Origin: Enchytraeus crypticus
Taxonomy: Eukaryota > Annelida > Clitellata > Enchytraeida > Enchytraeidae
NCBI GenBank assembly: GCA_905160935.1
Contig: CAJHZI010000495.1
Coordinates: 892,501 to 956,500 of the forward strand
DNA length: 64,000 bases
Direction of reading: 5' to 3'
Part shown: positions 6,286 through 29,813 of the stretch, in pieces
Layout of the letters: every line of letters begins with the position of its first letter
Numbering within the stretch: the first letter of the stretch is position 1
The notes under the pieces: generated by a model
What the model was told of the DNA's origin: nothing
The model's input: only the letters and a program-made list of their open reading frames with translations
The model's database searches: none
Made by a program: the position numbers and the translations under genes

Positions 6286-6391
6286 ATGACTGGATTTGGT
6301 CATTGGAGTGGAGTGGATCTAAGGTTGATGGTGTTGGTTGCGGGTTTATTTCTAGGTCTGGCAGGGCTGCCTGTGGAAGGACAAGAGTCAG
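6286..6391 (+). CDS. Receptor exon 1: signal peptide
   Basis: The exon runs from ATG to the donor TCAG|GTAGGT and ends in phase 1, the phase every LDLa exon needs. It encodes 35 residues with a basic residue (Arg) just before the hydrophobic core [15 protein letters not shown] and a likely cleavage near VEG-QES. An in-frame ATG at 6196 exists upstream, but 6286 gives the more typical signal peptide. A longer N-terminus or an upstream untranslated exon cannot be excluded. Confidence 0.7.
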
Positions 6392-6482
6392 GTAGGTTGA
6401 CGAAGCCAATAGGTCTGTGGATTTTGAAATAATGTTTTAATACAATTGTCCACCTTTTCCGAATTTGATAAAAATATTTAGG

Positions 6483-6531
<49 letters not shown>

Positions 6532-6932: not shown

Positions 6933-6976
<44 letters not shown>

Positions 6977-9900
6977 TAGATAGATATATACATGTATATA
7001 CATTATACATATAAGCTGTATCAATGTCATAGCCAACTGAGGTTCAATCTTGGGAGGCACTTTATTATTGGGGGGCACTGTGGGGGAGGCACACACTTTA
7101 TACAATATGTGTTACTTATATTTTGTGCTTAATACAAAATGTTACATGACATCTTGAGGGGCACATTCACCCTTACTGCGCCACCGAACTGTAGATATGA
7201 AGCTCTACAACGCTTCTCACGAAATGTTCCTCAACGATGAAAGCGATGTCACTGACATCACTTTCGAGTGAGGAAACTGACGTTAACATTAGATTTTTAC
7301 TAGCTTTATCAATGTATCTGCAGGTATCTCGACGTTCTACTGCGCAGCGGACAACATTGAAATATCTCGCGTGTTCGTATGTGACGGGTATCCGTATTGC
7401 TCTGACGGTGCAGATGATAGAAACTGCGGTACGAATAATGCTTACAGTATAACAATACTATTCTTCTACGTATATTCCGTCTGTACTGCAGTATGATAGA
7501 AGACTTGTAGAGTTTTGCATTTGACTGCATAGTTTATGCAAATATACGCAAATGATATTTAGCATATGTCATTTAGAATGTCTCAGTAGCGTAGGGGTAA
7601 ATTCATGAAGTTTTAAATGACAAATTCTGAGATGAATTTAACTCTCGTGGGTTCGAATCCCGAACGCACTGATCTGAGAGTAAAATCTCAGACATTCACT
7701 GGATATACGGAAATGGTTTAAATTGCCTAAAGGTTTAAGCAAGTGGTAATAAAAGTGATAGATATCAACATAATTGATAATTAATCATAATTGATAACAT
7801 AATTTATCAACATAACATTTCACTATAATGCGTGTTTTACTTTACAAATCCAATGCACAGTAATAAAGTACTGCATTATCTCGGGCTTGAAAGCGCCATG
7901 AGCGTGAAGGCTGTAATTAGTGATCCAGGCGTCTTGAAGAAAAGCGTAGATTTCCTGACTTTATTACTAACACACTGCACTTATCTAACTTGCTGCTAAT
8001 TTATTTGGAACAAATTTTTATATTGCAATTTAGCACTAAACAAATAACGGCTAAAGTATCCCAAACTACTTGATTAGAAAACTCACTCTTGGTCTGGTAA
8101 AACTTCACAAAGGGAAGCTGGATATGTGAATTTAAAGTTAAAATATCATTCTATATCGTACTAAACCTATTTGAGTATGGGATTTAATTTAATTTAGATA
8201 CCTGCCAATCTTGCGGAATTCTGACTTTTCTCTGCAACTCAACTAAGATCTGCATCGCCAGTTCTCAGATTTGCGATGGAATTAACAACTGTGAGGACAA
8301 CGAGGATGAAGCAGACTGCGGTACGTGACTGAACTCTCTAATCCTATTGCCCTCTGAGTAGTAGTGGATTAGTTGCATACGATAAATTTATTGTGTCAAA
8401 AGCTTTATAAAATCTTCAAAACAAAAAAAATAAAATAAAAGTAAACAAGCATTATAGTGAATAATCAACTGTGTTGATATCTATCACTTTTTAATACCAC
8501 ATGTTTAAGCCGTTAGCCAATTTAGACCATTTTCCGTATAACCAGTCCAATGAATGGCCGAGATTTACTCTCAGATCAGCGCGGCCGGGATTCGAACCCA
8601 CGAGGTTGCAATTATCAAAAAATCGCAAATGAAGGTTTACGTTCCAAACGTACGACTCGTATTATATTTATTGCCTCGCTTATGCTACAATATTTTCTAT
8701 AGTCAAACACTTAATTTTTGTATAATTTTTCGATTTATTTGAATATAAATACATTCTTGACATAATAATAAAAACGGTTTAATGTCCGTTTCCTCATAAA
8801 AGGATGATGTCAGGGACGTTATGTAGACATATTAATAACGACATATTAATAACGTATAGGTCTAATTTAAGCATTAGGGTTAGGTTAGGGTTAGGGTTGG
8901 GGTTTGGTTAGGGTTGAGGTTAAGGTTAGGGTTATGGTTAAGGATAGGGTTAGTGTTAGAGTTAGGGTTCAGGGTTAGTATTTGAATACTTTGGACATTT
9001 CATGGGAAGATGCTGTGAGGGTTGCTAAAGACTGAAAGGACTGGAGGAATGTTGCCGCCCTATGTTCTCTTCAGAACCCAGGGAACTGATGATGATAATA
9101 ATTTAAGCGAAGTTATACATGTGATATTTCATTGTTTTTTTTACAAATCTAAATAAGGGACTCAATATTTATTTCAGAAACTTGTCGCGGAGCAGAAGAT
9201 AAGATTTATTGTAACGACTCCACCGGATGCATTAGTAAGCATTTTCTGTGCGACGGGCATTGGGACTGTGGATATGGAGCAGATGAACTGGATTGTCGTA
9301 TGTTAAACTTCTACTAAACTTTATTTTACTTATTTTACCAAAGCTTAATTTACCAAAATTTGCCGTAATACCAAACAAAAAACTTCATTTTACCAAAGTC
9401 ACCAGAGGTTAGAAAGACATATAATTTATAGTGTTTATATATTTGTAGTGTTTATATAATATCAACTTTGGTCCCTTTTACTATGTTTGCCATATTGCTT
9501 TCTGTATATGAAGAGTATGGTTTTAAACGTCATATTTTTTCTCTAACTACTCATAATAACTAATCCTTAGCCAATCCTCTAACTAAACATTTTCCTTAAT
9601 TCCCTATTTGCTACTGGACATGGATAATTTTCATATCAATGGACAAAATAAATATTATATAATATTGTCTTCGGACTAGTTTTCTGGATTTTGGCATTTT
9701 CACCGTTTTTGGCCATTATTTTACCGGCTTGACTTGTTTCAATGTTGTTTGATGTTGTCGGGGACTTCAATTGCACTATAGGTGGTGTTATTATTATTAT
9801 TATATCATAGTAAATACTGCATAACTCAATGCTAGAGATTTCAATTTTCTCTACATTCTATCTATAGTGTTCTTTTAAAGTATTCATCTGATTCAATGAG

Positions 9901-12900
9901 AAATCATCCTTATCTATTTGCTACTGGACATTGATAATTTCCATATCAATGGACAAAATAAATATTATATAATATTAAATAATGGACCATCTTGTCATAA
10001 GCAGAATCCCCCAAAAATAATGCTATATCGCAAGGAATGTTATAGATGATTTAAAGATCCACTCGTATGTGGACTTGAAGAGGAAAACGGAACAAAAAGA
10101 TGAGTAGATGCGTTATATACCATGGACCTGTCAGTAAGCAGTGCAGTAAGAGAGATAGAATTCCATATTTGTCGACAAAAAATATTTTGTGTTTATTGGC
10201 AGAAACGTGTCGAGGTCTACCATCAGATTTTGTCTCCTGCAATGACTCGAGGTCGACGAGATGTATTCCCAACTCTCGTCTCTGTGACGGACTTCCTGAT
10301 TGTGACAACTCCGCCGACGAATCCTTGTGTGGTGAGTCCTTACTAGCAGGATTCTCTCTCTCTCCCTCTCTCTCTTAGTGCACTGCCTACTGGTAGGTTC
10401 ATGGTATATAACGCCTCTACTCATCTCTATCTTCGGGTTTTCCTCTTCATGTCCACATACGAGTGGATCTTTCAATCATCTATAACATTCCTTTTGATAT
10501 ACGATTATACCGAGGAAGGCAGAGGGGGCCCACCATGTTATAAGCAGAATCACCCAAGAATAATGGTATACCAGGATTCGCATTAGTCTAATTCCGTTCA
10601 TTATCTACTTACATATTTAAGAGTATTTAACTAAATCTATTGCAAACTACGAGATTTTGTCTTATTCATATGTCATTTCGCTTGATAATAAGTCATAACA
10701 ACCCACATAGAAATATTTGGTGAACATCATATACAGTCATTTTACGCCGGGTTGTTGCAGGAGACTGTCAGTATGCGGCTGGAATGACTTCCTGTAACTC
10801 CACGTCGATGTGTATCAGGGAAGAGAGAAGATGTGATGGATACGTGGATTGTCCGGACTCAACTGATGAAAACAACTGTGGTATCCAAACATCTAAACAC
10901 AACACTGCTTCTGCTTTACTAATCGTTTCACATCAGTGATTTGACTAGTAACCACTAGTACTTTATATATAGTGACTATACTAGTACTAATGGTACTATT
11001 GACTAGTATTAGTAGTACTATTGATTACTAGTACTAGTTGTACTATTGACTACTAATACCAGTAGTACTGACTACTAGTCATCGCATATAGCGCTTAAAT
11101 TTTTATTTTAGCCTCCCTTTTCCTCCACATTTCCGCATGGGATCTACTATTCCATATAGACCCTAATTTTAAATGTAAACAACGAATTAGGTACCGTTAT
11201 TACACAATTCAAACTAAGCAGCAGACTCATTACGTAGATACGGTAGAAAAGTCGTCATTTCCTAACAGGACATGATTGTACGTACACGCATAACATTGCA
11301 CATGTTTCACGGGATCTGTCAGGGTTATTGAAGAATAGATCAACCGTAAACTTCAAGTGTCTTAAGAGGCGATTAAGCAGGAACTGAGAAAAGTAAAGGG
11401 AAATTGCCTCAGGAATCACATTTTTCCCGAGACATGGGCTACATTAGGATGTGAATAAAACGTAGATTTTCTGTAGATGAGTTAATTTGTTAATCGATGA
11501 AGAGTGAGAACAGTATGTTGGTAGGAATATGTGCCTTGGACTTTTCAATTTTCCGAACACTTGATAAATAAAACGATATGTACACGAATTGTAGAATCCT
11601 GTCAATCCGGACTCGCTCTCTGTCAATCAACCGGCATATGTATCATGGACTTCGATTTCTGCAACGGCTTCAACAATTGTGGTGATAATGAGGATGAATT
11701 AAATTGTGGTAAATGTTGATATTGATCATATTTATTATGCTTATCAATCTATATATAGAATAAACGATTAATCAACCAACAAACCAATTCATTTATTATT
11801 CAATAATCCCATAAAGAAATCAGTCAATGAGCCGAGCAATTAACGAACTGAAATGCAATCATAGAACTTTAGCTGCAGTTTACGCTGTTAGCAGAGGAAA
11901 ATAAAAAAATTTCTGGAGTGATTTAGACTAAATCTCATCTAACACTGTATATTTCAAAATCCTGTAGTTCTGTACTCTTTCTCTAACATTGTTATTATAC
12001 AGTTCAAATTCAACATCTCGACGGAAGACAAACTGTAGTTTGTGGTAGATAGGATTCGCTGAAATTATTATATAATTTTTTATCTCTTTTCACTGTAGGC
12101 ATAGCTCCTTATCTTGCAATTTTACTTATTAACGCGTAGCATTCAGGGCTATGAACTGAAATATTGTGCATTCAGGGCTATGAACTGAAATATTGTGCAT
12201 TCAGGGCTATGAACTGAAATATTGTGCATTCAGGGCTATGAACTGAAATATTGTGCGTTCGTGGATAAATCTGCAAAGGATGGCTTTGATCGGTCGTCAT
12301 TTGATTGGTCAGATGCCATCAGGACCAGCACTCCTACCTTTTTTCAAACCATAGCAAATATCCTGAATACGTTAAACAGATATACTAAACTCAGCAGCAT
12401 TAGCCTTAGTTATCTCAACATTATTTAAATGCTCTAGAAAAGATTGCTTATCAGCACTGTAATCACAGCAATTATATAAATCATTATAATAAATCCTCCA
12501 TCGATCAACTATTTCTTTATCACCTATACAGCCAACAATAACATGTGCATATTTACTTGCCTTTGTATTATTAGAGTTATATATATCCTTTCAAAAAGTA
12601 GAATTATTTTTAGATATAGCCTAAGCGTACGCATCAGCTCTAAGAGATGATTCATTCTATTTACAAAAACGTAAAGCCATTTTAAACTGAGCTCTAGTAG
12701 ACTTCATTTCATAAAAATTGGACGATGTCTAGGTTTACCATGATTAAACTATTTCAAATAGGCTTGCCTAGCTATTGATTGTTTATCCTTCCATAATCAT
12801 TCCACCCTGGAACTGGAGATTTCATAGAAGAAATAGACTTATGAGGAATACACATGTTACAAGAATTACAAATACTAGAGATTATGCTGTGATGGTAATC

Positions 12901-15184: not shown

Positions 15185-15226
<42 letters not shown>

Positions 15227-16525
15227 TCGTTTCTATTATCCTTAAAATAGGCAAATTATGATTATTAGTAACCGTTGCCCTTGGATGGCGCATCGATTGC
15301 AGCCAGCGCTTATTTAACAATAATCTTCCAAAAAACTATCTACATTCGGTCTTCTGACCGCCATCCAAAAACTAACCCAGCCGGATAAGGTTTAACTTCG
15401 TTTATTGAAAAGCAAAACCACGCTCCTTTAGGTAGTATATCACTAACGAGTGGTTCACAAGTAAAGTTTTTGGCCTACTTTAAGTACAATTACGACGATT
15501 AAGTCATAATCTTTGAACTGAGTAACTGAGTATAGTTAGAGATTTTGATAATATTGCGCAAATTATTAAACAAATCAAATAATTATAATTTACACATTTA
15601 ATCTGCTAATCAGAAGAACACTATAGTGACTGCGTAGTTTCATTTTGACTTTAATTTTTCTTAAATTTATTGTCGATTTTTGTGATTACAGAGGACTGTA
15701 ATGGTGATACTAACCTAATCTATTGCAAGGCGCTGTCTTACTGTGTATTTAAGGTGTTCTATGATAAGCAAGTGTGCGGTATTACACCAGGTTGACTCCT
15801 ATATATAATCCTCTTATTAAATTAAAGATATAGAAGTGATTAATCGTTTCTCTTTAATGAGCCAATATACGACAATAGTATTTTCTTGAGTTGATGTTAT
15901 GATATAGTTGATCAAAGAAGAGTGGAGGCGTTATATACCATGAACCTGCCAGTAGGCAGTACACTAAAAGAGAGATTTAATCCAGTTAAAGGAATCAACG
16001 GAGAAGTCTGGGATTGGGCTGGTAGATCCACTGTTTTTCCTCTGTTGTCAATTCTGGTTTATTTTAGTTAATTGCGTGAAGAAAAACTGATGTAATAAAT
16101 TAAGACTTGGCTGATTAATTCAATTTTTAAAACTAATAAATACGTTAGGTCTAGTACTAAACTGCTTTAAATTAAACTGTCAAATAGTAAACTGATTTAA
16201 ATTAAACTGTCAAACTGTCAAATAATTTGTTGACTGATAACAAACCTATTTGAATTTCCTGATAATTCTTTATCCAGCTGCGTGCAGTTTGAGGGTCGGC
16301 TTTGTTGCATGCAATAATTCTAACGACATCTGCATACCAGAGAGCGCTCTATGCAACGGCATCAACGACTGCGAAAATTGGGAGGATGAAAAATTCTGTG
16401 GTATTTTAAAGAACAATATTAACCATTAATTAATCGCAAATTTTTATAGTAATAGTGCCGATGTGGAAATCTATAATATCTGAAGGTTTTATCTATTAGA
16501 GCCTTTAATGTCGGATATTAAGTAC

Positions 16526-16586
<61 letters not shown>

Positions 16587-17067
16587 GCTATCAGGATGAA
16601 TTTGAATGTTGAGGGGATCGGGAATAGGTTGGCTCAGTCGAGATTGAGATGATATGGGCATATTGTGAGAAAGGCAGATGAGGATGTAGTAATGAGAGCT
16701 TGGAGGGAAGAACTGAATGTTAAGCTAGAGAGAGATTGACCGCAGTTGACGTGGGATGCGGTGATTAAGAAGGACATGAAAAATAGGGGATTGACTGTAT
16801 AAAGAATTTTTCATGCCTACAGCCCTAGTTGGATGCTTAGTTATGATATATGTACTGAATGCTGTACTTTATTATATCAGAAAACTGCCGTGAAAAGACT
16901 GAGCATGTGCTCTGCGAGGGAACAAACTCCACCTGCATAAAGACGAATCAGATTTGTAATGGAATTAACGAGTGTGGGAACATGATGGACGAACAGGATT
17001 GCGGTAAATATTTTAAAATTTGCATAGCATATAGAAATAGCAAGTATATATTGCATAGCATATATAA

Positions 17068-17099
<32 letters not shown>

Positions 17100-20300: not shown

Positions 20301-23300
20301 GATAGATATCAACATAGTTGATTATTCACTATAATGCGTGTTTTTTACTTTTTTTCACTGCCACATACGAATGGATCTTTGATTTAAAGATCCGTTCTTC
20401 CAATCATCCAATCATCTATAACATTCCTTTTTAAAACCATTATTCTTGGGGGATTCTGCTTATGATGAGGTGGGCCCCCTATGCCTTCCTCATCTACGAC
20501 TAACATTTACTGGGCAGGGGCGTCACCCCGGAGAAAACAATCCTGTTTACCCATGCAATACAAGAGTCAAATATTACAAACAAATCAATAACAATCAACA
20601 AATCAAATATTACAAACAAATCAATAGCATACAACGAGTCTAATAATAAAAATAAATCAGTAACATACAACAAGTCAAATAATAAAATAAATCAATAACA
20701 TACAATTAATAAAATAATAAAATAAAGTAATAACATACAACGAGTTAAATCATCTTAAAACTAAATCAATAACAATAATAAACACTACCAATAAACAGTA
20801 AAAATGAATAATTAAAAGTAAAAAGTTAACATTAACGTCAGTTTCCTCACTAATAACAAAAATAAAAAATACTAATATACAATAACAATCAATAATTAAA
20901 AAACGGATAAAGTCAACGTCAGTTTCCTCACTCGAAAGCGATGTGATTGACGGGAAAGCCCAGGATTTGAATCTCGTACATACTGATCCGCGGTCGAATA
21001 TCTTACTGAAATCGCCACTGGCTCCATTCAGTAAAAAGAAACAATTAATAGTGATTGATAGAAATTTAATATGATGATACCAGCCTCACCCTACAACATT
21101 CATTAAAATGACAATTAATTATTGAATACTAGATTTGTTTCAAAATGTGGTTGTAGTTGATATAATATACAGAAATTATCCGTTATATTTATAATTTACT
21201 ATATGACTTCTTTTATTGATTGATTGATTTATTGACTGAATTTTTAAGCTTGTGCTGATATAGTATATTAAATATCTTATAAGATGTATGTATTGATTTA
21301 TTGACTGATGACTTGCTCGATTGATTATCCGATATTGTAATTTATTCATATAGGCCTATTGATTGACTGAACTAATGTTCAGGTTACAGCTGGTGTAAAA
21401 TATTAGAGAATCCTGTACGATGTAATGGCACGTTCAACATATGTGTGGCACCAGTACAAATCTGTAACATGGTCAATGACTGCGGGGATTTTGAGGATGA
21501 AAGCTATTGTGGTTTGTCAATCTTTTATAATTTTAATTTGATCAATTTGGTAACATATTATCCTTGTCGGCCTTATTGTTGTATTTGTGGAAAATTCTAG
21601 AATATCAGATTTCCTTGAAGTTCATTTTAATAGTGGTTGTAGTAATAATAATATTGGTTTAACGTCCGTTTCCTCATCCAAGGATGATGTCAGGGACGTA
21701 GATAAATTAAAGTCACTTCCCTGCCCAGAAATGAAACCAGCATGTTGAATCAATAGAGTTTTGCTCTTAGAGCAAAATGACTCATAGGTATGAATTTTGT
21801 CTTATGGAATCCTGTCTGCTTTCATGTAGATTGACTATATCTAAGCTTAAAGCGTTCATCAGCAAAGGGTCATTCAAACCAATCTTATATTTCCGTAGCG
21901 ACTATTTCGGATTTCCGACTATTAAATAAGTTGTCAATAACGAATGCGGATGATCTACTGTAAGTGAATCAATTATATAAGTGGCGAAGTTACCAATGGA
22001 CTAGTAAAAATTGCAAACTCTGTGTCACTAATGGTCAAATTTACTACTGAGATAATCAAGTGTTTAAACTTCAACAGTTGCGTAAACAGCTGATTAGTGA
22101 CTTGAGTTTATGATACGTAATAGAGATCAATATGAACGAATGTTTCATTAGAATAATCGTTTGTTTTAAGATTACATATCAATAGAGAATAGAATGATCG
22201 AGGACCTGACAAAGAGAGTGGGAGGAGACCATAGACTACCTCCTCACAGATACTTCGCTGCCTATCTGGCAGTTGATATCAAATTTCGGCTGATGAGTAT
22301 CAACGATTTGGTAATTTCTCTCTGTAATATTCAAGGCGCCTAGTTTATTGCTTCTCATTATGAGATCCTGGGCATACTAGGAATCTCCTACGAACATCCT
22401 ATGATGAACATTTAAAGAGCAGTACTGTGAAATTGAGACAGATTGTGAAAAACTATCATATTATCTGTTCTGAACCGGTGGCTTGTTGGCACATTCTGCG
22501 ACACCGGATCAGTACGTGCAGTGTTCAAATCCAGTGCTCTCCCCTTCACTGACTTGCTATTAGAGCAGGAAACTGACGTTAAACTTAGCCCTTGCCTTAA
22601 TCATAAACAGTCTATTTGAGAAATCGATAACTATTACTAAGCTATATAACTCAATTTAACGTTTGTTTCGGAACAACTCTCAGAGACAGTACTGCAAGGC
22701 TTTGAACTCACGACCTCAAAAGGTCACGAGTTCAAAACGTGAACTCTTGACCTTCGGTAAACTCAAACTCGTGAACTTTGGCTTTGCGGTCAAACGTGCT
22801 ATCAACTTGGACACCAGTAGGTACAGACTAACTTCTGATTAAGTATATTTATCTAAGAATGCTAAAGAAATTTAGGGGATTAATTGATCCCAGTTAAACT
22901 TGGATTCAAGGGAAGAATGATGAATGGATGATGATGATGACGATGACGATGACGGTGATGATGATGATGATTCTTGAATTTAATTTCTTGATATCAACAA
23001 TTCGTCCATTCTGAGATTTGAAGTTGACCAAATATATATGCTTTTCTCTTTATCTCAGAAATCTCTTTAATGTTAATAATATTATTATTTATTATACTAG
23101 TAATGTTGTTGTGCTACTTATGCACGAATGTTGTTGTTGTTGTTGTAGTAGTCGTTGATGTTGTTGTTGTACTACGCAGGATGAACGAAACGAGGCACTA
23201 TATTCAAAGGTTATAATTGATTTGGTAAGTTGACCTTACATGTATATCAGAATTAGTATTGAAATAAAACGGTTTTCTTTTACGAATGCGCTCTATTCGC

Positions 23301-26300
23301 TTAATTATTTTAATTTAGCTCTTACACTTTTTCCAATTTTCCTCTTGTTACACGAAAGATCTACTGGTTTTTAGATATTTTTTCTTTCTTTCTCAGTTCA
23401 TTTTCCGTATAAAAAATTTCGCCTCTATGATTGTTGGCAAAAATAATTTTTCGTAAAACACAACTATGCATCAAACAGATCAATAATTTCACGACGCTTA
23501 GCACACTAGGCGTTTAATATGTACTGGGCAATATGCATACCGCTTTTGTAGGCCTATTATTTGTTTAAACGGGATTTTAATTCAGACCCAAATCGTTCAT
23601 ACGTTCTTTCGTATAGGAGACACCAACCTTAACTTAATCGTCATTCTGTAGACACTTTTATTTTAATTCTTTTTATAATATGATTTTTATTCTCATAAAT
23701 AATTGTAATTAATCTAAACTCGGCGCAGTTTGTGTTAACAATTTTCCTTAAGTATTCTAAAACAAGCAGTCACTTTATATTATCTCTTGAATTTAAACTC
23801 AATAAATATTAATATTTATAAAGAAGATGCATGAAGACGCTCCTGTCATCTCTTATAAAAATTCGTTTAACTGGGACACTAACTATGTTGATATTCTAGA
23901 GCTGGCAGGATGATTTTAGATTCTGGATCGAGGCAAACTACAACAGGGATTCAGTTGGGATCTCAGACAAGAGGCTGTGGAAACCAAATCTTGGCCTAAC
24001 CAACAGGTTTTCTTTTATGCATCTTTAGCTTTAAACATAACATAACCTAACGACACACTGGGTCAGGAAGCACATATGCTTGTTTAAGGTCCTCCTTCCT
24101 CTCCATGGTTATTAACAATCGTTGCCTTTTGATGGCGCATCAATTGCAGCCGGCGCGGCTTAAGAATAACTTTCCTTCACCCTGGGATAGGTTCCTTCAA
24201 ACCTGTCAACACTTGGTCTTCCAATGTGGTCACCCAAAAAGTACTAACCGAGGCCGATGTAGCTTTACTTCGATTATTGATGCTCTACTAAACCAAGTGC
24301 GCTAATCCCGACGTTGTGTGACGCACTCCTTTAAATATTGTTGCTGCTGAAACGAATTTATTTTATTTATTTATTTATTTATTTATTGCTTTATTTCAGG
24401 CGTAAAAACCCATACATGAATCTTGCACATAGAACAATGCAACAAAAACCAGAAAAGCAAATAGGCTGCGCATAAATTGAGCTATAGGCCTAAAACAATT
24501 ACTTATAGAATTAGGCATACAAGGCTATAATAGGCTCAGAACATCAAAACACTTAACTAGCATATTAGCATTATCCAGCAAGCACATTCTAAACTTTAAT
24601 CTGTAATTTGAAAGGATAGTATCAAAACTAGGCAATCCAGTTTCTAGCAGCGCGATGGTTAGGCTGCTGTAACGTTTGTATCCAAAAAATATTTTAATAC
24701 ATTTATTATAGCAAGATCGAAACTTCTCTATTGAACCTATTGTAAACGACGACCATAGTGCCACATCATAGAAGCACATACAATAGGATTTGAACAGGAC
24801 CTTCTTAACATTAAGAGAGCAATAAGCAAATCTACGCTTTAATATATTCGTACGCATAAACATACCACGTATTTCACGCTGTATATCGTTATTATCACAA
24901 CCATCATTGGTTATAATATGACCTAAATATTTAAACTGCGTTACATAATTAATAAAAGAATTGTCCAACTTAAATCTTGAAAATTCCTCTAATACACTCC
25001 AATTTCGATCCTTAGGAGCAAATATCATGGCGACAGTTTTACTAATATTAAAAGACATGTTAATAACTTTAGCGTTAAACTGTAAAGCTCTCCACGAAGG
25101 AGCAATGAGAACGATATCATCAGCATATGCAAGAATGTTAATTAATCTATTATTAATTGCACAACCAATCCCGGTATCTACTACAGCTCTAACCATATCG
25201 CGTATATATCTAGAGAACAAATACGGTGAAAGTACACTTCCCTGACGCGTACCATTTCCAATGTGAAAACAAGTAGAAACAGAATTACGCCATCGAACAA
25301 AGCATTGCTGTTTAGAATACCAGAATGCAAGAATAAATATAATACTGATGTTAATGTTATCGTCTAGTAATTTTCCAAACAATTTCCAGTAATTAACTTT
25401 ATCGAAAGCTTTACTGAAATCAACAAAACAGGTAAAAACATGACTTCCATGATGTCTATAATACTTGATAGTCTGCTTTAGTACATGAGTACATAATCCG
25501 GAGCAACATGTTTAAATGAACGTAGAGACTAGGACACGCGAATATGGATAAGATACTTTAAATTAGCTGTGAAATTCGGCAGACTGGTAGGTTAAATTGC
25601 CGACAATATTTATGATTGTTAAGTAAACTATTTCGGCTGACATTGCTTCTACATGTAACTTCAACAAAAGAGTGGTGATGACATTCAGCTTTGCTCAGTC
25701 ATGCTAGATGATGACGACGATGAGCTTATCTTTTGACTGAATTTATGAATCAATCAGTCAATCAATCAATCAACTGATTAGGCGCATTACTAATCACTTT
25801 ACTTTATTAATTTGAATTTAATTAATTTAAATTATTTTAATTTCTTACTTTGCTTTATTTTGTCGTACAATTTTAGCATCGATGATGTCTACGAAGATCT
25901 CTTCCGACCAAAGACAAACAAGATTCTTTTAAGAAACAATGGACTTTCTGCCATTCGATTTCTGGGAATTTCCAGAACTAGATGTCAATTGGACATGACG
26001 TATTTCCCATACGATAGTCAGGCATGCTACATAGAAATATCCCTATTCGACAGCAACTACCCCTACATACAATTCCTCTATCCTCCTCAGTCTATCGATA
26101 CTGATTTCTATGCGGAAAATACGCAGTGGACCCTCATAGACACAAAGACTGCGGTGAGCACGACCGTAATTAAACTCATTTAATTAATTATACTCTTTCT
26201 CTCTTAGTGCACTGCCTACTGGCAGGACCATGGCATATAACGCCTCCACTCTTCTTTGTCTTCCGCTTTCCTCTTCATTTCCACATATGCGTGGGTCTTT

Positions 26301-29300
26301 AAATCATCTAACATACCTAATCTTGGTCTGCCTCTGCCTCTTTTCCCTTCCATTCTACCTTCTATGACCTCTTTTAGTAGACCTTCCCCTTAGAATGTGT
26401 CCTATCCATCTCTTCTTCCTATTTCTTAATACATTTATCAGATGTCTATCCGTACCAACTCTCTCCAGGACTTCCTCATTTGTAACCTTTTGAGTCCAGC
26501 TAATCCTCTCCATTATTCTCCAAATCCACAGTTCTAATGCCTCCAGTTTCCTAAGATCTTCCTTACTTAAGGCCCATGTTTCATTATACACTTCAATGGA
26601 AAAATGTTTGTGTCGAAATGGTCCAGTTTTAGGTGAAAACTTCTTGAGAAGTGCCAAACTTGTACGCCTTTCAATCAATCAATCAATAACTAATCAATAT
26701 CTATCATCAGCTTTTGTCATGTGCGTTTATATACGGTTGTTTGCTTATCGCATATAAGTTCAATAGTCAAAGTTCTGTAGGCCTGTGAAATAAATTATTG
26801 AAGTCAAATTTCTTTCAATGATACTGACTTTGAGCAAAATACATGTTCAGAGGTAGTTGAAAATTTAGTTAATTAACCTTCATCTTCACAGGTCTAGTCA
26901 CATTGATTTGTTCTGCATTTAGTAAAGACTTAAATGCTGTAACAATGGTGAACTAAAAAAATCATGTACATATGCGCCTACATTTGCGAATTGTGCCGCT
27001 ATGAATTGTCACACAATAAATTATAATCTATAAATTGTCATGCAGTTAATTATCATCTCTAAATTGTCATACAATAAATTGTCATCTATAAATTGTCATG
27101 CAGTTAATTATCATCTCTAAATTGTCATACAATAAATTGTCATCTATAAATTGTCATGCAGTTAATTATCATCTCTAAATTGTCATACAATAAATTGTCA
27201 TCTATAAATTGTCACACAATAAGTTATCATCAATTGTCATACAATCAATTATCATCTATAAATTGTCATACAATAAATTGTCATCTATTGTCATACAATA
27301 AATTATCATCTATAAATTGTCATACAATAAATTATCATCTATGAATTGTCATACAATAAGTTATCATCAATTGTCATACAATAAATTATCATCTATGAAT
27401 TGTCATACAATAAATTATCATCTATGAATTGTCATACAATAAGTTATCATCTATGAATTGTCATACAATAAATTATCATCTATGAATTGTCATACAATAA
27501 GTTATCATCTATGAATTGTCATACAATAAATTATCATCTATGAATTGTCATACAATAAATTATCATCTATGAATTGTCATACAATAAGTTATCATAATTG
27601 TCATACAATAAATTATCATCTATGAATTGTCATACAATAAATTATCATCTATGAATTGTCATACAATAAGTTATCATCTATGAATTGTCATACAATAAAT
27701 TATCATCTATGAATTGTCATACAATAAATTATCATCTATGAATTGTCATACAATAAGTTATCATCTATGAATTGTCATACAATAAATTATCATCTATGAA
27801 TTGTCATACAATAATTATCATCTATGAATTGTCATACAATAAATTATCATCTATGAATTGTCATACAATAAGTTATCATCTATGAATTATCATGCAATGA
27901 ATTTTTATGCATTTTCATAAAATCCAGTAATTTATCTAAGTTTTAAATTGACAGTGTTTTGTCTGGAATCAAAGGCACGTCTTCCGTGCCGTCATATATC
28001 TGAGAAGAAAGCCACTCTATCACTTGCTAAGCATCATCGTTCCCACAACGCTGAAGACTCTCTTGACAGTCTTGGTCTTTCTCATCCCCTACGAGACCCT
28101 AGAGAGATTGAGCGTCCAGATCACACTGCTCATGGCCCTAGTGGTTGACCACCTATCGCTGATGGAGAATATGCCGAAAACATCGGGACACTTTCCTCTC
28201 TTTGGTAATTTTATTTAGATTATTAATATTACTGCTGTTATATATCGTCTTCTTCTTCCCTTTAATCCCAGTTTAACTAGGGTCGAGATACGAATTGTTA
28301 CATACCCTAATAATGCTATAATATAATACAATTTTATTCAGATTATTAATATTATTATTATGTATCATAATATTATTATATTATATAGTATGTTCTGTAC
28401 AATATTATTATTCCCCGTGTTGTGCTCGGGTGAGGTTGGACCACTGCAGAATATGGCAACCGCAAACAATCTGCTGCGTGTTCGCAATAGGCGACTAAGG
28501 CAGGAGCTGAGGATGGCAAGAGGGGACCCACCTCACCATTAAATATTTCCCCAAGGATCAAATGGTAATTAATCCATTTAACTGAGGAAGGCAACGGGAA
28601 ACCATCTTAGAAGCCACACTTTTCCGAAGCTATAGGCTACATAAGGGATAAATAAAGAAGAGACTTTGTGAAGGGATTTACTTGTTGATCTAAGGAGTGC
28701 TCTCATGGAGCGAGAAAGCAGACATTGAGTATGAATATGTACCTTGAACCTGCCACTTGGCAGTGCACTGAAGAGAGAGGGAGAATATTGCTATATTTCA
28801 TATTATTATAAATCATTATAATGTTATTTTCCGAATTTTTTATATTTGAATTTATGATTTAATTGACGTTTGATGAAATTCAATATTGCATTCACGAAAG
28901 ATAAGGCCTTAATTTAGTTTGATTTTCTATGTTAATTATTCTTTAACTTACTGCGAATACGAAAATAATTTTACATTTGTATAGAATTAAGAGATATATA
29001 TACAGTTTTATATTTTAATAAAAGATTAAAACTAAAAGCTAAGCAGCAGAAATACGTAAAAAGTTTCAATAATTTCTTAGGCAGTCTACATGTACATGAT
29101 TATAATTTATTATTTGTATGTTGTTGAAATGAATGTTTCCAGAAATACGATTTAAAATTGATTACTTTTTTGTTAAGATTTTCCACTTGTAAGACTAAAA
29201 GGCAACGGATTGATATCATGGAATCCTGTTGGAAGCTAATTAACAAATTGTCTTTATGTGATTAGGATTTTACTTAATAAATCTAAATCGAATTTAAGTA

Positions 29301-29813
29301 AAATCAGTAATACACCTTATTGTAGCTTCTCAAAGCACACAGGAGCATTGAAATAATTGATAAAGTCAAGCCAATTAGACAATTTAAGAAATTAGCGAAA
29401 TGTTTGCGCTTATTTATGTTGTAGATATGTATTTATCCGTAATTATGGTGAGCACAGCTTTGGGACTTGTTCTTTCTGGAATAACTGGATTGCTCTACGA
29501 AACCTCATATCGTCGAATTCCCCTCAGAATTCGTCGCTTTATTATTCATACCCTGGGCCGCTATTGCGCTCTATCGAGAGCAACCAGAATGTGTGAAGCA
29601 GTGAAACTCAGTGACGAAAGTATTGCGAAAGAAAATCAAACGATAGCGCAGATATTGGACTTTCTACTATTTATTCTGTTTGGACTTTTCACGGTCACTT
29701 TCACGGTTGGAATTTTTATTGTGATAATTGTGAATAGCCAAGTCGTACCGCAGCCGATGGGTTATGATTTGGTAGTTAACGAAAGTCAGAGGTACCAGGA
29801 AAGTGCATTTTAA
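6286..29813 (+). CDS. LDLa-array Cys-loop ligand-gated ion channel subunit (22 exons)
   Basis: Joined from 22 exons by GT-AG sites and compatible phases, this gives 1049 aa plus stop. Residues 1-35 hold a signal peptide. Residues 36-670 hold 16 LDLa modules, each in its own phase 1-1 exon. Residues about 671-860 are a Cys-loop ligand-binding domain with the WKP loop A motif and a cystine loop C781-x13-C795 containing FPYD. Membrane segments TM1 (about 861-881, conserved Pro867), TM2 (about 889-907), TM3 (about 922-946) and TM4 (about 998-1023) follow, with a short loop of about 50 aa between TM3 and TM4. Such subunits assemble as pentamers in the plasma membrane and gate ion flow on ligand binding. 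A Glu at pore position -1' suggests a cation channel; this is inference, and the ligand is unknown. The loop C vicinal Cys pair of nicotinic alpha subunits is absent. The LDLa array would form a long extracellular, probably Ca2+-binding, stalk. The fusion rests on my exon joining; transcript evidence would settle it. Confidence 0.85.
7324..7428 (+). CDS. Receptor exon 2: LDLa module 1 (atypical)
   Basis: Acceptor CTGCAG and donor GCG|GTACGA are in phase 1-1. The module keeps cysteines 2, 4, 5 and 6 and the acidic end ([10 protein letters not shown]), but lacks cysteines 1 and 3, which pair with each other in LDLa domains. Their joint absence suggests a tolerated loss of one disulfide rather than random decay. 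A SINE-A tail ends just upstream of the acceptor. Confidence 0.75.
8198..8320 (+). CDS. Receptor exon 3: LDLa module 2
   Basis: Acceptor TTTAG, donor GCG|GTACGT, phase 1-1, 123 nt. Six cysteines are present with [16 protein letters not shown] carrying the calcium-cage acidic residues. A CNST sequon follows the second cysteine. An extra Cys sits near the start (TCQSC). Confidence 0.9.
8870..8985 (+). repeat. Interstitial telomere-like TTAGGG repeats
   Basis: About 18 degenerate units of TTAGGG (with TTAGGT, TTGGGG and TTGAGG variants) lie in a receptor intron. They sit between a minus-strand SINE-E end and a LINE 3' fragment. Decay shows age. Confidence 0.85.
8985..9105 (+). mobile_element. 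LINE 3' terminal fragment
   Basis: Translation gives [13 protein letters not shown][25 protein letters not shown], the W.D...A.DR..WR......C pattern common at the very end of non-LTR reverse-transcriptase proteins, followed by TGATGATAATAA. Confidence 0.55.
9178..9297 (+). CDS. Receptor exon 4: LDLa module 3
   Basis: Acceptor TTTCAG, donor GTC|GTATGT, phase 1-1, 120 nt. Six cysteines, with [16 protein letters not shown] at the end and a CNDS sequon after cysteine 2. Confidence 0.9.
10203..10331 (+). CDS. Receptor exon 5: LDLa module 4
   Basis: Acceptor TTGGCAG, donor GTG|GTGAGT, phase 1-1, 129 nt. A fully canonical LDLa with [16 protein letters not shown] and a CNDS sequon. LINE-GA fragments flank it on both sides within about 50 nt. 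Confidence 0.92.
10761..10880 (+). CDS. Receptor exon 6: LDLa module 5
   Basis: Acceptor TTGCAG, donor GTG|GTATCC, phase 1-1, 120 nt. Six cysteines, [16 protein letters not shown] with intact calcium-cage acids, and a CNST sequon. Confidence 0.92.
11595..11708 (+). CDS. Receptor exon 7: LDLa module 6
   Basis: Acceptor TTGTAG, donor GTG|GTAAAT, phase 1-1, 114 nt. Six cysteines ending [10 protein letters not shown]. The usual CDG is CNG here and there is no sequon after cysteine 2. Confidence 0.9.
12139..12255. repeat. 29-bp tandem repeat, 4 copies
   Basis: GCATTCAGGGCTATGAACTG plus AAATATTGT repeats four times in an intron of the receptor gene with almost no divergence, so the expansion is recent. 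The overlapping open frame is a by-product. Confidence 0.92.
13021..13137 (+). CDS. Receptor exon 8: LDLa module 7
   Basis: Acceptor GCTCAG, donor GCA|GTAAGC, phase 1-1, 117 nt. Six cysteines, [16 protein letters not shown] and a CNRT sequon. Confidence 0.92.
13138..13470. repeat. Donor-proximal CAATCAATCA-type minisatellite
   Basis: Degenerate units of about 30 bp built from CAATCAATCATATGCAGGCA and ATCGATAAGT begin within a few bases of the exon 8 donor. Several units contain GCAGGTAATC, which resembles a splice acceptor/donor junction and recurs in the golgin array at 63742-63930. Confidence 0.75.
13712..13834 (+). CDS. Receptor exon 9: LDLa module 8
   Basis: The acceptor CACTAG|GT is chosen because it supplies cysteine 1 and phase 1; a nearer TTGCAG would break the frame. 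The donor is GTG|GTTGGT, a weaker site. Six cysteines ending [16 protein letters not shown]. No sequon after cysteine 2. Confidence 0.82.
14495..14617 (+). CDS. Receptor exon 10: LDLa module 9
   Basis: Acceptor ATTCAG, donor GTG|GTAAAA, phase 1-1, 123 nt. Six cysteines, [16 protein letters not shown], and a CNGT sequon. Confidence 0.92.
14785..14950 (+). mobile_element. SINE-E copy
   Basis: A short retroposon with GTGAATCGATTTTTAGTGAC, then GTCCCTGACATCATCCTTGT and ATGAGGAAAAGGACGTTAAG, ending in ATT repeats. Other copies are at 55185-55355 (+), 30070-30180 (+), 8765-8830 (-), 21650-21720 (-) and 34635-34700 (-). The last 40 bases resemble the SINE-A tail. Confidence 0.65.
15270..15435 (-). 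mobile_element. SINE-5S copy (diverged)
   Basis: This is the most diverged of three copies of a repeat whose body resembles 5S rRNA. The CATCCAAAAACTAACCCAGCC stretch, read on the plus strand, corresponds to the 5S segment around its internal C box. Better copies are at 24045-24315 and 44690-44975. Confidence 0.55.
15692..15778 (+). CDS. Receptor exon 11: LDLa half-module (module 10)
   Basis: Acceptor ATTACAG, donor GCG|GTATTA, phase 1-1, but only 87 nt (29 aa). It keeps cysteines 1 to 3 (EDC, IYC, SYC) and one later Cys, and lacks the CDG...DC..DE lobe that binds calcium in LDLa domains. The exon stays in frame, so it is either a reduced module or a dying exon that is skipped. Confidence 0.65.
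16278..16400 (+). CDS. Receptor exon 12: LDLa module 11
   Basis: Acceptor ATCCAG, donor GTG|GTATTT, phase 1-1, 123 nt. Six cysteines, [16 protein letters not shown], and a CNNS sequon. Confidence 0.92.
16590..16855 (+). mobile_element. Decayed LINE reverse-transcriptase C-terminal fragment
   Basis: Conceptual translation gives NRLAQSRLR[12 protein letters not shown], then a [10 protein letters not shown] stretch and [15 protein letters not shown]. This is the C-terminal signature common in non-LTR reverse transcriptases (RLRWYGH ... W...VKEDL...GL). Internal stops show that it is dead. An ATT microsatellite precedes it at 16525-16590. Confidence 0.65.
16881..17003 (+). CDS. Receptor exon 13: LDLa module 12
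   Basis: Acceptor ATATCAG, donor GCG|GTAAAT, phase 1-1, 123 nt. Six cysteines, [16 protein letters not shown]. The sequon NST lies three residues later than in the other modules. Long AT repeats start about 40 nt after the donor. Confidence 0.92.
17711..17833 (+). CDS. Receptor exon 14: LDLa module 13
   Basis: Acceptor CTCGCAG, donor GTG|GTTACT (weak), phase 1-1, 123 nt. Six cysteines, [16 protein letters not shown] and a CNST sequon. A GAT/GAC triplet tract (17505-17685) precedes the acceptor. Confidence 0.92.
18265..18400 (+). mobile_element. SINE-A copy
   Basis: A nearly complete tRNA-derived SINE. It has CTGGAGCCAGTGGCGATGTC, a GGTTCAAATTC B-box-like stretch, then the CACTGATATCGCTTTCGAGT tail. 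A SINE-D copy in opposite orientation lies just upstream (18095-18245). Confidence 0.8.
19045..19170 (+). CDS. Receptor exon 15: LDLa module 14
   Basis: Acceptor TTTGCAG, donor GTG|GTTAGT, phase 1-1, 126 nt. Seven cysteines (an extra one in NSCLCD), ending [16 protein letters not shown]; the Gly of CDG is Ala. CNSS sequon. ATC repeats and a minus-strand SINE-D copy (19280-19575) follow the donor. Confidence 0.88.
19675..19870 (+). mobile_element. SINE-A copy with duplicated tail, abutting an acceptor
   Basis: A complete SINE-A is followed by a second copy of its 3' tail (19806-19869). That second tail ends in CTTTACCAGCTTTTACTTTG directly before the AG of receptor exon 16, so SINE sequence supplies the pyrimidine tract of that splice site. 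Confidence 0.8.
19881..20000 (+). CDS. Receptor exon 16: LDLa module 15
   Basis: Acceptor TTGCAG, donor GTG|GTATGC, phase 1-1, 120 nt. Six cysteines, [16 protein letters not shown]. There is no sequon after cysteine 2 (CGGTTS). Confidence 0.92.
20010..20560 (-). mobile_element. LINE-GA fragment split by a SINE-B insertion
   Basis: The minus-strand LINE-GA 3' end (20010-20111) is interrupted by a full SINE-B copy in plus orientation (about 20112-20358) and resumes with CCACATACGAATGGATCTTT. SINE-B has an A-box-like TAGCGTAGTGGTAACG, a B-box GGGTTCGAATCCC and a 3' end near ATTCACTATAATGCGTG. The LINE is therefore older than the SINE insertion. Confidence 0.75.
20560..20825. repeat. Degenerate AAATCAATAACATACAAC repeat
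   Basis: Irregular units of about 30 bp, rich in AAATCAATAACATACAAC and AATAATAAAA, lie in an intron of the receptor gene. Nothing coding is seen. Confidence 0.6.
20830..21030 (-). mobile_element. SINE-A copy
   Basis: Minus-strand SINE-A: TGGAGCCAGTGGCGATTTCA at the right end, a B-box-like GATTCAAATCC, and the tail toward 20900. A detached second tail piece lies at 20830-20855. Confidence 0.75.
21383..21511 (+). CDS. Receptor exon 17: LDLa module 16
   Basis: Acceptor GTTCAG, donor GTG|GTTTGT, phase 1-1, 129 nt. Six cysteines, [16 protein letters not shown] and a CNGT sequon. This is the last module before the channel domain. Confidence 0.9.
22186..22310 (+). CDS. Receptor exon 18: start of Cys-loop ligand-binding domain
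   Basis: Acceptor TCAATAG accepts phase 1 from the last LDLa exon; donor TTG|GTAATT leaves phase 0. The 41-residue stretch has an N-terminal helix-like IEDLTKRVG and strand 1 [14 protein letters not shown], which matches the V-x-F-x-L...SI-D pattern at the start of Cys-loop receptors. It was too short to stand out as an open frame, but its phase fits both neighbours. Confidence 0.8.
22475..22600 (+). mobile_element. SINE-A copy
   Basis: A diverged plus-strand SINE-A with GGATCAGTACGTGCAGTGTT, a TTCAAATCC box and the GGAAACTGACGTTAAACTTA tail. A SINE-D 3' end follows at 22865-22975. Confidence 0.65.
23909..24006 (+). CDS. Receptor exon 19: ligand-binding domain, loops D and A
   Basis: Acceptor CTGGCAG in phase 0 and donor CAACAG|GTTTTC leaving phase 2. 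It encodes [20 protein letters not shown] and [12 protein letters not shown], which corresponds to the loop D strand and the loop A motif W-x-P-D/N of Cys-loop receptors. The split codon AG|C joins perfectly to exon 20. Confidence 0.82.
24045..24315 (-). mobile_element. SINE-5S copy
   Basis: On the minus strand the body reads ATTGAAGTAAAGCTACATCG, then GCCTCGGTTAGTACTTTTTG and GGTGACCACATTGGAAGACC. This follows 5S rRNA from its A box (AGCTAAGCAGGGTCGGGCC) through the intermediate element and C box (GGTTAGTACTTGGATGGGAG). That supports a 5S-derived (SINE3-like) promoter. Confidence 0.7.
24355..25515 (-). mobile_element. 5'-truncated LINE with reverse transcriptase and AATA tail
   Basis: The minus-strand frame is open from about 25510 to the stop at 24525. 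It holds [13 protein letters not shown] (first catalytic Asp), [13 protein letters not shown] and LAYADDIVL (catalytic YADD), then the thumb and C-terminal region. Upstream of 25515 the frame closes, so endonuclease and the rest are missing. The 3' end is CCTGAAATAAAGCAATAAAT with an AATA-type tail. It lies antisense inside a receptor intron. The frame is intact, so it is a fairly young truncated insertion. Confidence 0.88.
25877..26153 (+). CDS. Receptor exon 20: ligand-binding domain with the Cys-loop
   Basis: Acceptor ATTTTAG, donor GCG|GTGAGC, phase 2 in and 0 out. It carries the signature [15 protein letters not shown], in which two cysteines are 13 residues apart around the FPYD tip that contacts the membrane domain in this family. 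After it, the strand WTLIDTK leads toward loop C. Confidence 0.93.
26190..26690 (-). mobile_element. LINE-GA fragment with reverse-transcriptase C-terminal region
   Basis: The best LINE-GA copy. The minus-strand frame 26355-26678 contains [31 protein letters not shown] and [11 protein letters not shown], a widespread non-LTR reverse-transcriptase C-terminal signature. The element ends in CCAGTAGGCAGTGCACTAAG and a short AG tail. It is 5'-truncated. Confidence 0.8.
27005..27895. repeat. 29-bp minisatellite, about 30 copies
   Basis: Units of AATTGTCATACAATAAATTA plus TCATCTATG (with variants AAGTT and a shorter left-hand type) fill 890 bp. They end 60 bp before the acceptor of receptor exon 21. 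Direct repeats have no spacers, so this is a minisatellite and not a CRISPR array. Confidence 0.95.
27955..28204 (+). CDS. Receptor exon 21: loop C, TM1 and TM2
   Basis: Acceptor TTGACAG in phase 0 and donor TTTG|GTAATT leaving phase 1. It encodes a short loop C ([10 protein letters not shown]), the pre-TM1 [11 protein letters not shown] typical of nicotinic-type subunits, TM1 with the conserved Pro ([11 protein letters not shown]), and TM2 ([20 protein letters not shown]) ending MENMPKTS. Glu at -1' and Glu at 20' match cation-selective members; Gln 4', Met 9' and Asp 14' do not match common members. Confidence 0.92.
28720..28790 (+). mobile_element. LINE-GA terminal fragment
   Basis: The end CTTGAACCTGCCACTTGGCA followed by GTGCACTGAAGAGAGAG matches the LINE-GA 3' end. 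Shorter copies of the same end are at 10040-10155 (+), 10345-10575 (-) and 15920-15975 (+). Confidence 0.65.
29425..29813 (+). CDS. Receptor exon 22: TM3, short cytoplasmic loop, TM4, stop
   Basis: Acceptor GTTGTAG accepts phase 1. TM3 is [21 protein letters not shown] basic amphipathic segment ([15 protein letters not shown]) resembles the MX helix of nicotinic subunits. TM4 is [20 protein letters not shown]. The protein ends after a short extracellular tail with an NES sequon. The TM3-TM4 loop is about 50 residues, shorter than in vertebrate nicotinic subunits. Confidence 0.92.

What the first reader, a model, noticed from the sequence alone, without database searches (positions are those of the whole stretch)
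6286..29813. A Cys-loop ion channel subunit carrying an array of 16 LDLa modules
Seen directly: 22 exons with valid splice sites and fully compatible phases join to exactly 1050 codons, from signal peptide through 16 LDLa exons to a complete ligand-binding domain, four membrane segments and a stop. Known: Cys-loop subunits normally have only the ligand-binding domain outside the membrane, and LDLa arrays belong to lipoprotein and scavenger-type receptors. Inference: this is a channel with a long extracellular adhesion or ligand-capturing stalk (about 635 residues), which could link lipoprotein, matrix or Ca2+ sensing to ion flow. I know of no characterised channel with this layout, though uncharacterised relatives may exist in databases.
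Basis: partly seen in the sequence, partly recalled or inferred. Interest (0 to 1): 0.92.

Follow-up and report, generated by a model that had tools for sequence, protein, structure and literature searches.

The report
Ion-channel subunit with an LDL-receptor stalk
This animal gene joins a long chain of sixteen LDL-receptor-type modules to a nerve-receptor-like ion channel, and the same genome holds further genes with this layout, although extra N-terminal domains had been described as absent from animal channels of this kind.

Summary
Window 6286-29813 (+) encodes one open product: signal peptide, 16 LDLa modules (14 with six or seven Cys, 2 degenerate), a Cys-loop ligand-binding domain, M1-M4 and a stop. 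There are 23 exons, not 22 (a 45-nt exon at 23180-23224 was missed), and exon 18 more likely starts at 22171 than 22186; the product is then 1,076 aa. The ligand-binding exon has 29 further matches at 35-45% identity. In 9 of 10 of these examined, LDLa exons lie within 20 kb upstream, 44 of 44 on the channel's strand; the tenth has one about 38 kb upstream. Exon phases and an unusual glycan site recur in the paralogs. So this is a gene family of LDLa-stalked, nicotinic-type subunits. Lipoprotein capture is not favoured: the lysine-docking aromatic is mostly absent. Most likely the array is a Ca2+-binding, glycosylated recognition or anchoring stalk on a cation-type subunit whose acetylcholine box has decayed. 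What it binds, and whether it gates the pore, is unknown. A 2022 paper states that N-terminal domains are not observed in eukaryotic homologs. No transcripts were available.

The parts
6286..6391 (+). Exon 1: start codon and signal peptide ([15 protein letters not shown] core), ends in phase 1
   Evidence: hydrophobic segment 7-33
7324..7428 (+). Exon 2: LDLa module 1, degenerate (4 Cys; Cys I and III both lost)
8198..8320 (+). Exon 3: LDLa module 2 (7 Cys)
9178..9297 (+). Exon 4: LDLa module 3
10203..10331 (+). Exon 5: LDLa module 4
10761..10880 (+). Exon 6: LDLa module 5
11595..11708 (+). Exon 7: LDLa module 6
13021..13137 (+). Exon 8: LDLa module 7
13712..13834 (+). Exon 9: LDLa module 8 (acceptor cactag|gttcttgc)
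14495..14617 (+). Exon 10: LDLa module 9; first row of the AlphaFold job
15692..15790 (+). Exon 11: LDLa module 10, degenerate (4 Cys; no Ca2+ half; weak donor)
16278..16400 (+). Exon 12: LDLa module 11
16881..17003 (+). Exon 13: LDLa module 12
17711..17833 (+). Exon 14: LDLa module 13
19045..19170 (+). Exon 15: LDLa module 14 (7 Cys)
19881..20000 (+). Exon 16: LDLa module 15
21383..21511 (+). Exon 17: LDLa module 16, membrane-proximal; 23/39 and 22/39 identical to the last recognised modules of two C207 paralogs
21512..22170 (+). Intron 17 (659 nt): joins array to channel; no convincing separate signal-peptide exon by eye and hydropathy
22171..22310 (+). Exon 18: N-terminal helix and first strands of the ligand-binding domain (140 nt; 22186-22310 is the alternative)
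23180..23224 (+).
23900..24006 (+). Exon 20: ligand-binding domain
25877..26153 (+). Exon 21: ligand-binding domain with the Cys-loop [15 protein letters not shown]
27955..28204 (+). Exon 22: loop C remnant, pre-M1 Arg, M1, M2, up to the start of M3
29425..29813 (+). Exon 23: M3, short cytoplasmic loop, M4, stop

Best explanation
Shown from DNA: one open gene model for a nicotinic-type (cation-type) Cys-loop subunit with 16 LDLa modules between the signal peptide and the ligand-binding domain, and paralogs with the same order and strand in this genome. Inferred origin: symmetrical phase 1-1 LDLa exons entered the phase-1 intron after the signal-peptide exon of an ancestral nicotinic gene, and the fused gene was then copied, often in tandem. 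Inferred working: each stalked subunit carries a roughly 640-residue, acidic (net charge -65), N-glycosylated, Ca2+-binding stalk on top of the pentamer, joined to the first helix of the ligand-binding domain with almost no linker. The stalk recognises an extracellular partner (matrix, neighbouring cell or soluble protein) and anchors or positions the channel; because the joint is tight, binding or Ca2+ may also bias gating, as the N-terminal domain of bacterial DeCLIC does. The pore is probably cation-permeable. The classical acetylcholine box is mostly lost, so the subunit probably works beside other subunits or answers another ligand.
For: Continuous frame over 23 exons. Pfam LDLa/LBD/memb. 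Closest solved chain alpha-7 nAChR, E 1.5e-33. Five hydrophobic segments only: signal, M1-M4. Own genome: channel paralogs; LDLa exons upstream in 9 of 10 paralogs, 44 of 44 on the channel's strand (binomial 1.1e-13 if exons were independent; by gene it is 9 of 9). Array query: 43 of 52 hits outside the window lie on channel-family contigs, and the next channel exon downstream is on the same strand for 41 of the 42 that have one. 36 of 38 regex-recognised paralog modules have a phase-1 donor directly after Cys VI, and 38 of 38 a phase-1 acceptor within 14 nt before Cys I. Shared sequon right after Cys II: 9 of 13 window and 31 of 38 paralog modules against 14 of 534 modules of 50 other LDLa proteins. 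Cation-type pore: E and R of the GE[K/R] motif kept as LER (motif: PMC4795631, passages). DeCLIC precedent (PMC9897478, PMC12664993, passages).
Against: No transcript or protein evidence. The acceptor at the array-channel junction is weak in either version. Exon 18 was recognised in 3 of 10 paralogs and exon 20 in some only. Two paralogs show a single LDLa exon in 20 kb, and C439 none. Positional kinship of the last module is seen in 2 of 9 paralogs; in the other seven the last recognised module is closer to another window module. Five channel-family contigs (C103, C655, C384, C378, C428) gave no array hit, though only 69 of 425 candidates were scored. One LDLa hit (C723:18571) has its next channel exon on the other strand. 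The binding partner, Ca2+ dependence, glycosylation, assembly and conductance are inferred. The LDLa domain of LEV-10 is dispensable for receptor clustering (PMC9083331, passages), so clustering is not a given for LDLa.
Confidence: 0.62

Rival explanations
1. Two neighbouring genes: a secreted LDLa-array protein and a separate channel subunit.
For: The junction acceptor is weak. Reading on through exon 17 gives a stop at 21598-21600, so a short LDLa-only isoform is possible. Two small open frames in the intron have some hydrophobicity (21777, peak 1.68; 22132, 17 codons, peak 2.22); no signal-peptide predictor was run. No RNA evidence.
Against: Only 659-674 nt separate the last module from the channel; the frame upstream of exon 18 stops at 22167; the 22132 frame ends within or next to exon 18, too close for an intron. 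The layout recurs in paralogs (35-45% identity in the LBD exon) with all 44 LDLa exons found on the channel's strand and 41 of 42 in the wider search. Last LDLa frame to exon 18 is about 0.5 kb in C235 and C722 and 2.5 kb in C172.
Confidence: 0.05
2. The stalk captures lipoprotein or another LDLR-type ligand and links it to ion flow.
For: LDLa arrays in LDLR-family proteins bind lipoproteins (PMC6966886, passages); the array is strongly acidic (net -65).
Against: The aromatic before Cys IV is present in 1 of 13 window and 7 of 38 paralog modules against 242 of 534 (Fisher 2.4e-5 pooled). Sequons sit right after Cys II in most modules. The full acidic set is present in 6 of 13 window modules, which is not lower than the 182 of 534 of other proteins, so that measure does not speak against it.
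Confidence: 0.12
3. A non-conducting or decaying subunit (decoy or pseudogene-like).
For: Acetylcholine box mostly lost: of the five box residues only the complementary-face Trp is unchanged in the alpha-7 alignment. Two modules are degenerate. Met at 9' and a charged residue at 14' of M2 (positions counted by me).
Against: Open frame across 23 exons with a single final stop. Cys-loop, FPxD motif, M1 proline and -1' Glu kept. The loop-B Trp is also missing in the 9 paralog LBD exons printed, so it is a family trait rather than decay of this copy.
Confidence: 0.12
4. Exon skipping tunes stalk length: every LDLa exon is 1-1, so any set can be skipped without a frameshift, giving isoforms with few or no modules.
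For: All 16 LDLa exons are phase 1-1 in the model; exon 11 has a weak donor and lacks half a module.
Against: No transcripts; symmetry is common for extracellular modules whatever their splicing. Compatible with the main explanation.
Confidence: 0.3

Closest known systems
Nicotinic acetylcholine receptor subunits (alpha-7 type), Cys-loop/pLGIC superfamily
   Same: LBD, 13-residue Cys-loop, FPxD, M1-M4, E/R of the cation motif; residues 28-367 of the channel half align to alpha-7 at E 1.5e-33; introns inside the LBD at places I recall from CHRNA7 (45-nt exon), and PMC6354393 says three introns are shared by all vertebrate nAChR genes (passages).
   Different: 16 LDLa modules before the LBD; acetylcholine box largely lost; no vicinal Cys pair; short M3-M4 loop.
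DeCLIC, bacterial pLGIC with N-terminal domains (PMC9897478, PMC12664993; passages)
   Same: Large accessory domain N-terminal to the LBD of a pLGIC; Ca2+ is involved; in DeCLIC the domain influences gating.
   Different: DeCLIC has two beta jelly-roll lobes, not LDLa; bacterial; no common origin of the accessory domains is implied. PMC9897478 says such domains are not observed in eukaryotic homologs.
Molluscan nAChRs with extra domains (PMC6896357, abstract and one section read)
   Same: Expanded nAChR families in lophotrochozoans; 41 genes in its Table 1 have 'other functional domains', of which dynamin and GAIN are named.
   Different: 'LDL' does not occur in its main text, but not all 41 are named there, so an LDLa case among them cannot be excluded; its expanded genes tend to be intronless, this family is intron-rich.
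LDLa-bearing auxiliary or organiser proteins: LEV-10, SOL-2, Neto (PMC9083331, passages) and LRP4 (PMC6966886, passages)
   Same: LDLa modules next to ionotropic receptors at synapses.
   Different: There the modules are on separate proteins, one LDLa with CUB domains or eight in LRP4; here they are fused to the channel. For LEV-10 the LDLa is dispensable.

Membership tests
Cys-loop receptor (pLGIC), cation type | LBD and four-helix transmembrane domain above Pfam cut-offs | tested here: met
   82.7 bits (cut-off 26) and 47.5 bits (28.1); M1-M4 as hydrophobic segments
Cys-loop receptor (pLGIC), cation type | Two Cys 13 residues apart around FPxD | tested here: met
   [15 protein letters not shown] in exon 21
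Cys-loop receptor (pLGIC), cation type | GE[K/R] motif before M2 | tested here: inconclusive
   LER: Glu and Arg kept, Gly replaced
Cys-loop receptor (pLGIC), cation type | Conducts cations as a pentamer | not testable with these tools
   needs expression and recording
Acetylcholine-binding alpha subunit | Aromatic box and vicinal Cys pair in loop C | tested here: not met
   alpha-7 alignment: W55 kept, Y93 to T, W149 to F, Y188 to V, CC to NQ, Y195 to F (numbering recalled)
LDLa module | Six Cys and the acidic Ca2+ motif, LDLa fold | tested here: met
   14 of 16 modules with six or seven Cys and invariant D-E; AlphaFold model of one module pLDDT 81, best matches are LDLa structures, TM about 0.7, but 0 of 109 at Foldseek E <= 0.001
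LDLR-type lipoprotein receptor | EGF and beta-propeller domains with the LDLa array, single membrane span (recalled) | tested here: not met
   only three Pfam families at E 0.01; four membrane segments
LDLR-type ligand-binding module | Aromatic two residues before Cys IV (recalled) | tested here: not met
   1 of 13 window modules
pLGIC with N-terminal accessory domain (DeCLIC type, by function) | Folded domain N-terminal to the LBD in the same chain | tested here: met
   gene model and paralogs; transcript not tested
pLGIC with N-terminal accessory domain (DeCLIC type, by function) | Accessory domain alters gating | not testable with these tools
   needs recordings with and without the stalk

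The most novel reading that the evidence does not exclude
This is a multigene family of recognition channels: tandemly expanded cation-channel subunits, each with its own glycosylated LDLa stalk of different length, in which what the stalk touches (another cell, matrix or a soluble protein), and not a small transmitter, decides where the channel sits and when it opens. It would be a fused receptor, auxiliary subunit and channel in one chain.
Probability: 0.25. Interest if true: 0.92.

Novelty: new variant of a known kind. Interest (0 to 1): 0.78.

Why it matters
Papers on this superfamily describe animal members as stereotyped in architecture (PMC549065, passages) and N-terminal domains as not observed in any eukaryotic homolog (PMC9897478, passages). 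Jaiteh 2016 set aside the ends of the sequences and named their domain architectures as work still to do (PMC4795631, passages). A family of nicotinic-type subunits with LDLa stalks gives that question an animal test case: does an extracellular accessory domain steer, anchor or gate a Cys-loop channel? It also suggests that the auxiliary LDLa proteins found beside synaptic receptors have a counterpart in which the module is part of the channel itself.

Tried and rejected
Rejected: further LDLa exons elsewhere in the window (none better than E 0.58). Less likely: 22186 as the exon-18 start.

Led nowhere: the large protein search with words from the channel half, candidates of about 589-1874 aa, gave no hit at E 1e-3 among 5772 candidates; the channel half alone gave 2 of 3981, the better a partial Lymnaea protein; words from the first 500 residues gave 50 of 2973, none listing PF02931. 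These searches need shared exact words, so absence there is weak. Rfam and tRNA scans of the window: nothing. The species was not identified.

Control not obtained: upstream DNA of ordinary nAChR genes could not be fetched. In its place I compared two coordinate tables by eye: none of the 150 scored PF00057 hits lies within 20 kb upstream on the same strand of any of the 150 scored PF02931 hits. This is a weak control, because those 150 LDLa hits are the canonical ones; none of them is on the window's or the channel-family contigs.

Analysis errors, replaced: one search used an option tblastn does not have and printed nothing (redone); one search stopped with an error; one search translated minus-strand loci on the wrong strand (redone). 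Rows dropped: modules that do not fit the Cys pattern (3 of 16 in the window, 6 of 44 LDLa exons in paralogs) are outside the sequon and aromatic counts; by eye one of the three window modules dropped (exon 15) also has the sequon.

Full report
Gene model. I rebuilt the gene from the sequence. It has 23 exons on the + strand from 6286 to 29813 with GT/AG sites throughout. Exon 1 codes for a signal peptide and ends in phase 1. Exons 2-17 are sixteen LDLa exons, each in phase 1 at both ends. Exons 18-23 code for a complete Cys-loop subunit. Leaving it out keeps the frame. Exon 18 has two possible phase-1 acceptors. The one at 22171 scores better than 22186 under a matrix made from the other 21 acceptors (1.9 against -2.0), though neither is strong (29% and 71% of all AG sites in the window score as high), and it makes an exon of 140 nt. 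In three paralogs the exon-18 acceptor that I judged best, of 3 to 6 open ones each, gives 140, 143 and 149 nt. With 22171 the product has 1,076 residues and one stop, at the end; with 22186, 1,071.

Domains. Pfam finds LDLa (E 2.7e-73, 12 stretches), Neur_chan_LBD (3.3e-23) and Neur_chan_memb (3.5e-12), and nothing else at E 0.01. The closest solved chains for the channel half are alpha-7 nicotinic receptors (E 1.5e-33). Hydrophobic segments are the signal peptide and four membrane spans only. A profile of the sixteen modules finds sixteen strong exons in the 64 kb, the next best at E 0.58; being built from them, it tests only for missed ones. Fourteen modules have six or seven Cys. The first lacks Cys I and III, and the tenth lacks its Ca2+-binding half; I read these as losses of disulfide partners together, which is inference. 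An AlphaFold model of one module (mean pLDDT 81, pTM 0.47) has LDLa structures as its best matches (VLDLR LA3, probability 1.00, TM 0.71, E 0.011; 0 of 109 matches at E <= 0.001).

One gene or two. Within the window: the last module and the channel are 659-674 nt apart; the frame before exon 18 meets a stop at 22167; the open frames in the intron do not look to me like a signal-peptide exon, though two have some hydrophobicity and no signal-peptide predictor was run. Against one gene, the junction acceptor is weak. The decisive evidence came from the window's own genome, 524 Mb in 802 contigs. The channel half gives 103 scored matches. Apart from the window, 29 are matches to the ligand-binding exon at 35-45% identity (my count from the table; one is partial, and two on C172 look like recent copies). 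I took ten of these and read up to 20 kb upstream of each. LDLa exons number 8, 1, 5, 6, 0, 9, 5, 7, 2 and 1: nine of ten hold some, 44 in all, every one on the channel's strand. Exons of one array are not independent, so the gene count, 9 of 9 on the same strand, is the safer figure. The tenth (C439) has none in 20 kb but has one on its strand about 38 kb upstream. A search of the genome with the LDLa array gives 16 window hits and 52 others (69 of 425 candidates scored). 43 of the 52 lie on contigs of the channel family; 42 of these have a channel exon downstream, and for 41 the next one is on the same strand. Thirty-three lie within 40 kb of it on the same strand; eight are farther, up to 181 kb, so these eight say little. 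Five contigs with channel-family exons (C103, C655, C384, C378, C428) gave no array hit.

Shared design. In the nine paralogs, 38 of 44 LDLa exons fit a six-Cys pattern. 36 of 38 have a phase-1 donor one base after Cys VI, and 38 of 38 a phase-1 acceptor within 14 nt before Cys I. The window's membrane-proximal module is most like the last recognised modules of the two C207 paralogs (23/39 and 22/39 identities; in one of the two it is the only module recognised), whose channels are the closest in the ligand-binding exon (45 and 44%). In the other seven the last recognised module is closer to another window module. Exon-18 equivalents follow the last LDLa frame by about 0.5 kb in C235 and C722 and 2.5 kb in C172. 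Exon 20 equivalents were found in several paralogs, not in all. A tree of the ligand-binding exon puts all 11 family rows together with only the partial Lymnaea protein among them; the ten ordinary matches of the same genome that I used fall outside. Support is modest (83/83); the Lymnaea row has a very long branch; the family alone is one group in 0% of 200 bootstrap trees because of it, and one clade is not rejected (p-AU 0.454).

What the stalk is like. Right after Cys II, 9 of 13 window modules and 31 of 38 paralog modules carry N-x-S/T, against 14 of 534 modules in 50 other LDLa proteins (Fisher 7.7e-40 for the pooled family). In the model this place is the turn between two short strands. 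The aromatic two before Cys IV, which I recall as the lysine-docking residue of LDLR modules, is present in 1 of 13 window and 7 of 38 paralog modules against 242 of 534. The Asp-Glu pair before Cys VI is invariant in 14 aligned modules; the full four-residue acidic set is present in 6 of 13, not less than the 182 of 534 of other proteins. The array has net charge -65. This fits a glycosylated, Ca2+-binding rod better than an LDLR-type ligand trap. The modules of one array are not independent, so the Fisher values overstate certainty.

What the channel is like. In the alpha-7 alignment the complementary-face Trp is kept, Tyr93 is Thr, Trp149 is Phe, Tyr188 is Val, the vicinal Cys pair is Asn-Gln and Tyr195 is Phe (numbering recalled). 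The loop-B Trp is also missing in the nine paralog exons printed (the tenth, C223, did not fit that script's pattern). Before M2 the sequence is LER; in metazoans GE[K/R] goes with cation selectivity (PMC4795631, passages). I infer a cation-type pore and a non-classical agonist site.

Origin (inference). PMC6354393 says that three introns are shared by all vertebrate nAChR genes (passages). From memory, CHRNA7 exons 2-4 have 140, 45 and 110 nt; here exons 18-20 have 140, 45 and 107. Phase-1 introns are over-represented near the signal-peptide cleavage site (PMC1626468, passages). Phase 1-1 LDLa exons could therefore enter such an intron without breaking the frame.

Literature. PMC9897478 and PMC12664993 (passages) describe N-terminal domains as a feature of some prokaryotic channels; the first says they are not observed in any eukaryotic homolog; in DeCLIC the domain influences gating and Ca2+ stabilises it. 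PMC549065 (passages) calls the architectures of known animal members stereotypic. PMC6896357 (abstract, one section and passages) reports 41 nAChR genes with other functional domains, naming dynamin and GAIN; LDL does not occur in its main text, but not all 41 are named. None of the papers listed by my searches for this layout describes it (listings only; open-licence papers only). Predicted database entries with this layout may well exist.

Verdict. The architecture and the family are well supported (about 0.93 that it is one gene, my estimate). The stalk's task is inference (about 0.45 for recognition or anchoring). The species was not identified; the large nAChR family, the TTAGGG-like stretch and the Lymnaea match suggest a mollusc or other lophotrochozoan (inference).

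Noticed in passing
window 32803-34440, - strand: A 545-codon open frame for a major-facilitator transporter (PF07690, E 8e-26).
   Followed up: partly
window 24525-25511, - strand: A reverse-transcriptase fragment (PF00078, E 6.6e-16) inside the intron between exons 20 and 21.
   Followed up: no
window 41436-43905, - strand: Retrotransposon-like frames with reverse transcriptase and RNase H, and a zinc knuckle just below its cut-off.
   Followed up: no
window 52162-62779, + strand: Several long open frames of coiled-coil look, perhaps exons of one large gene; no Pfam family above its cut-off.
   Followed up: no
window 26888-27901, 56137-56952, 59763-60463, 1781-2210: Minisatellites with 29-, 34-, 29- and 43-base units; the first lies in the intron between exons 21 and 22.
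   Followed up: no
window about 8875-8980: A stretch of TTAGGG-like repeats inside the intron between exons 3 and 4, like an interstitial telomere repeat.
   Followed up: no
G000 contigs C172 (2500 and 41103; 5251 and 43854; 18048 and 56727) and C223 (325168): LDLa and channel exons with the same or nearly the same scores, which suggests very recent copies or uncollapsed haplotypes.
   Followed up: no
G000, whole genome: 150 scored stretches (of 405 first candidates) match the neurotransmitter-gated LBD family above its cut-off; many are single exons, but the receptor family is very large.
   Followed up: partly
G000 contigs C103, C655, C384, C378, C428: Channel-family exons for which no LDLa array hit was listed; either beyond the search depth or stalkless relatives.
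   Followed up: no
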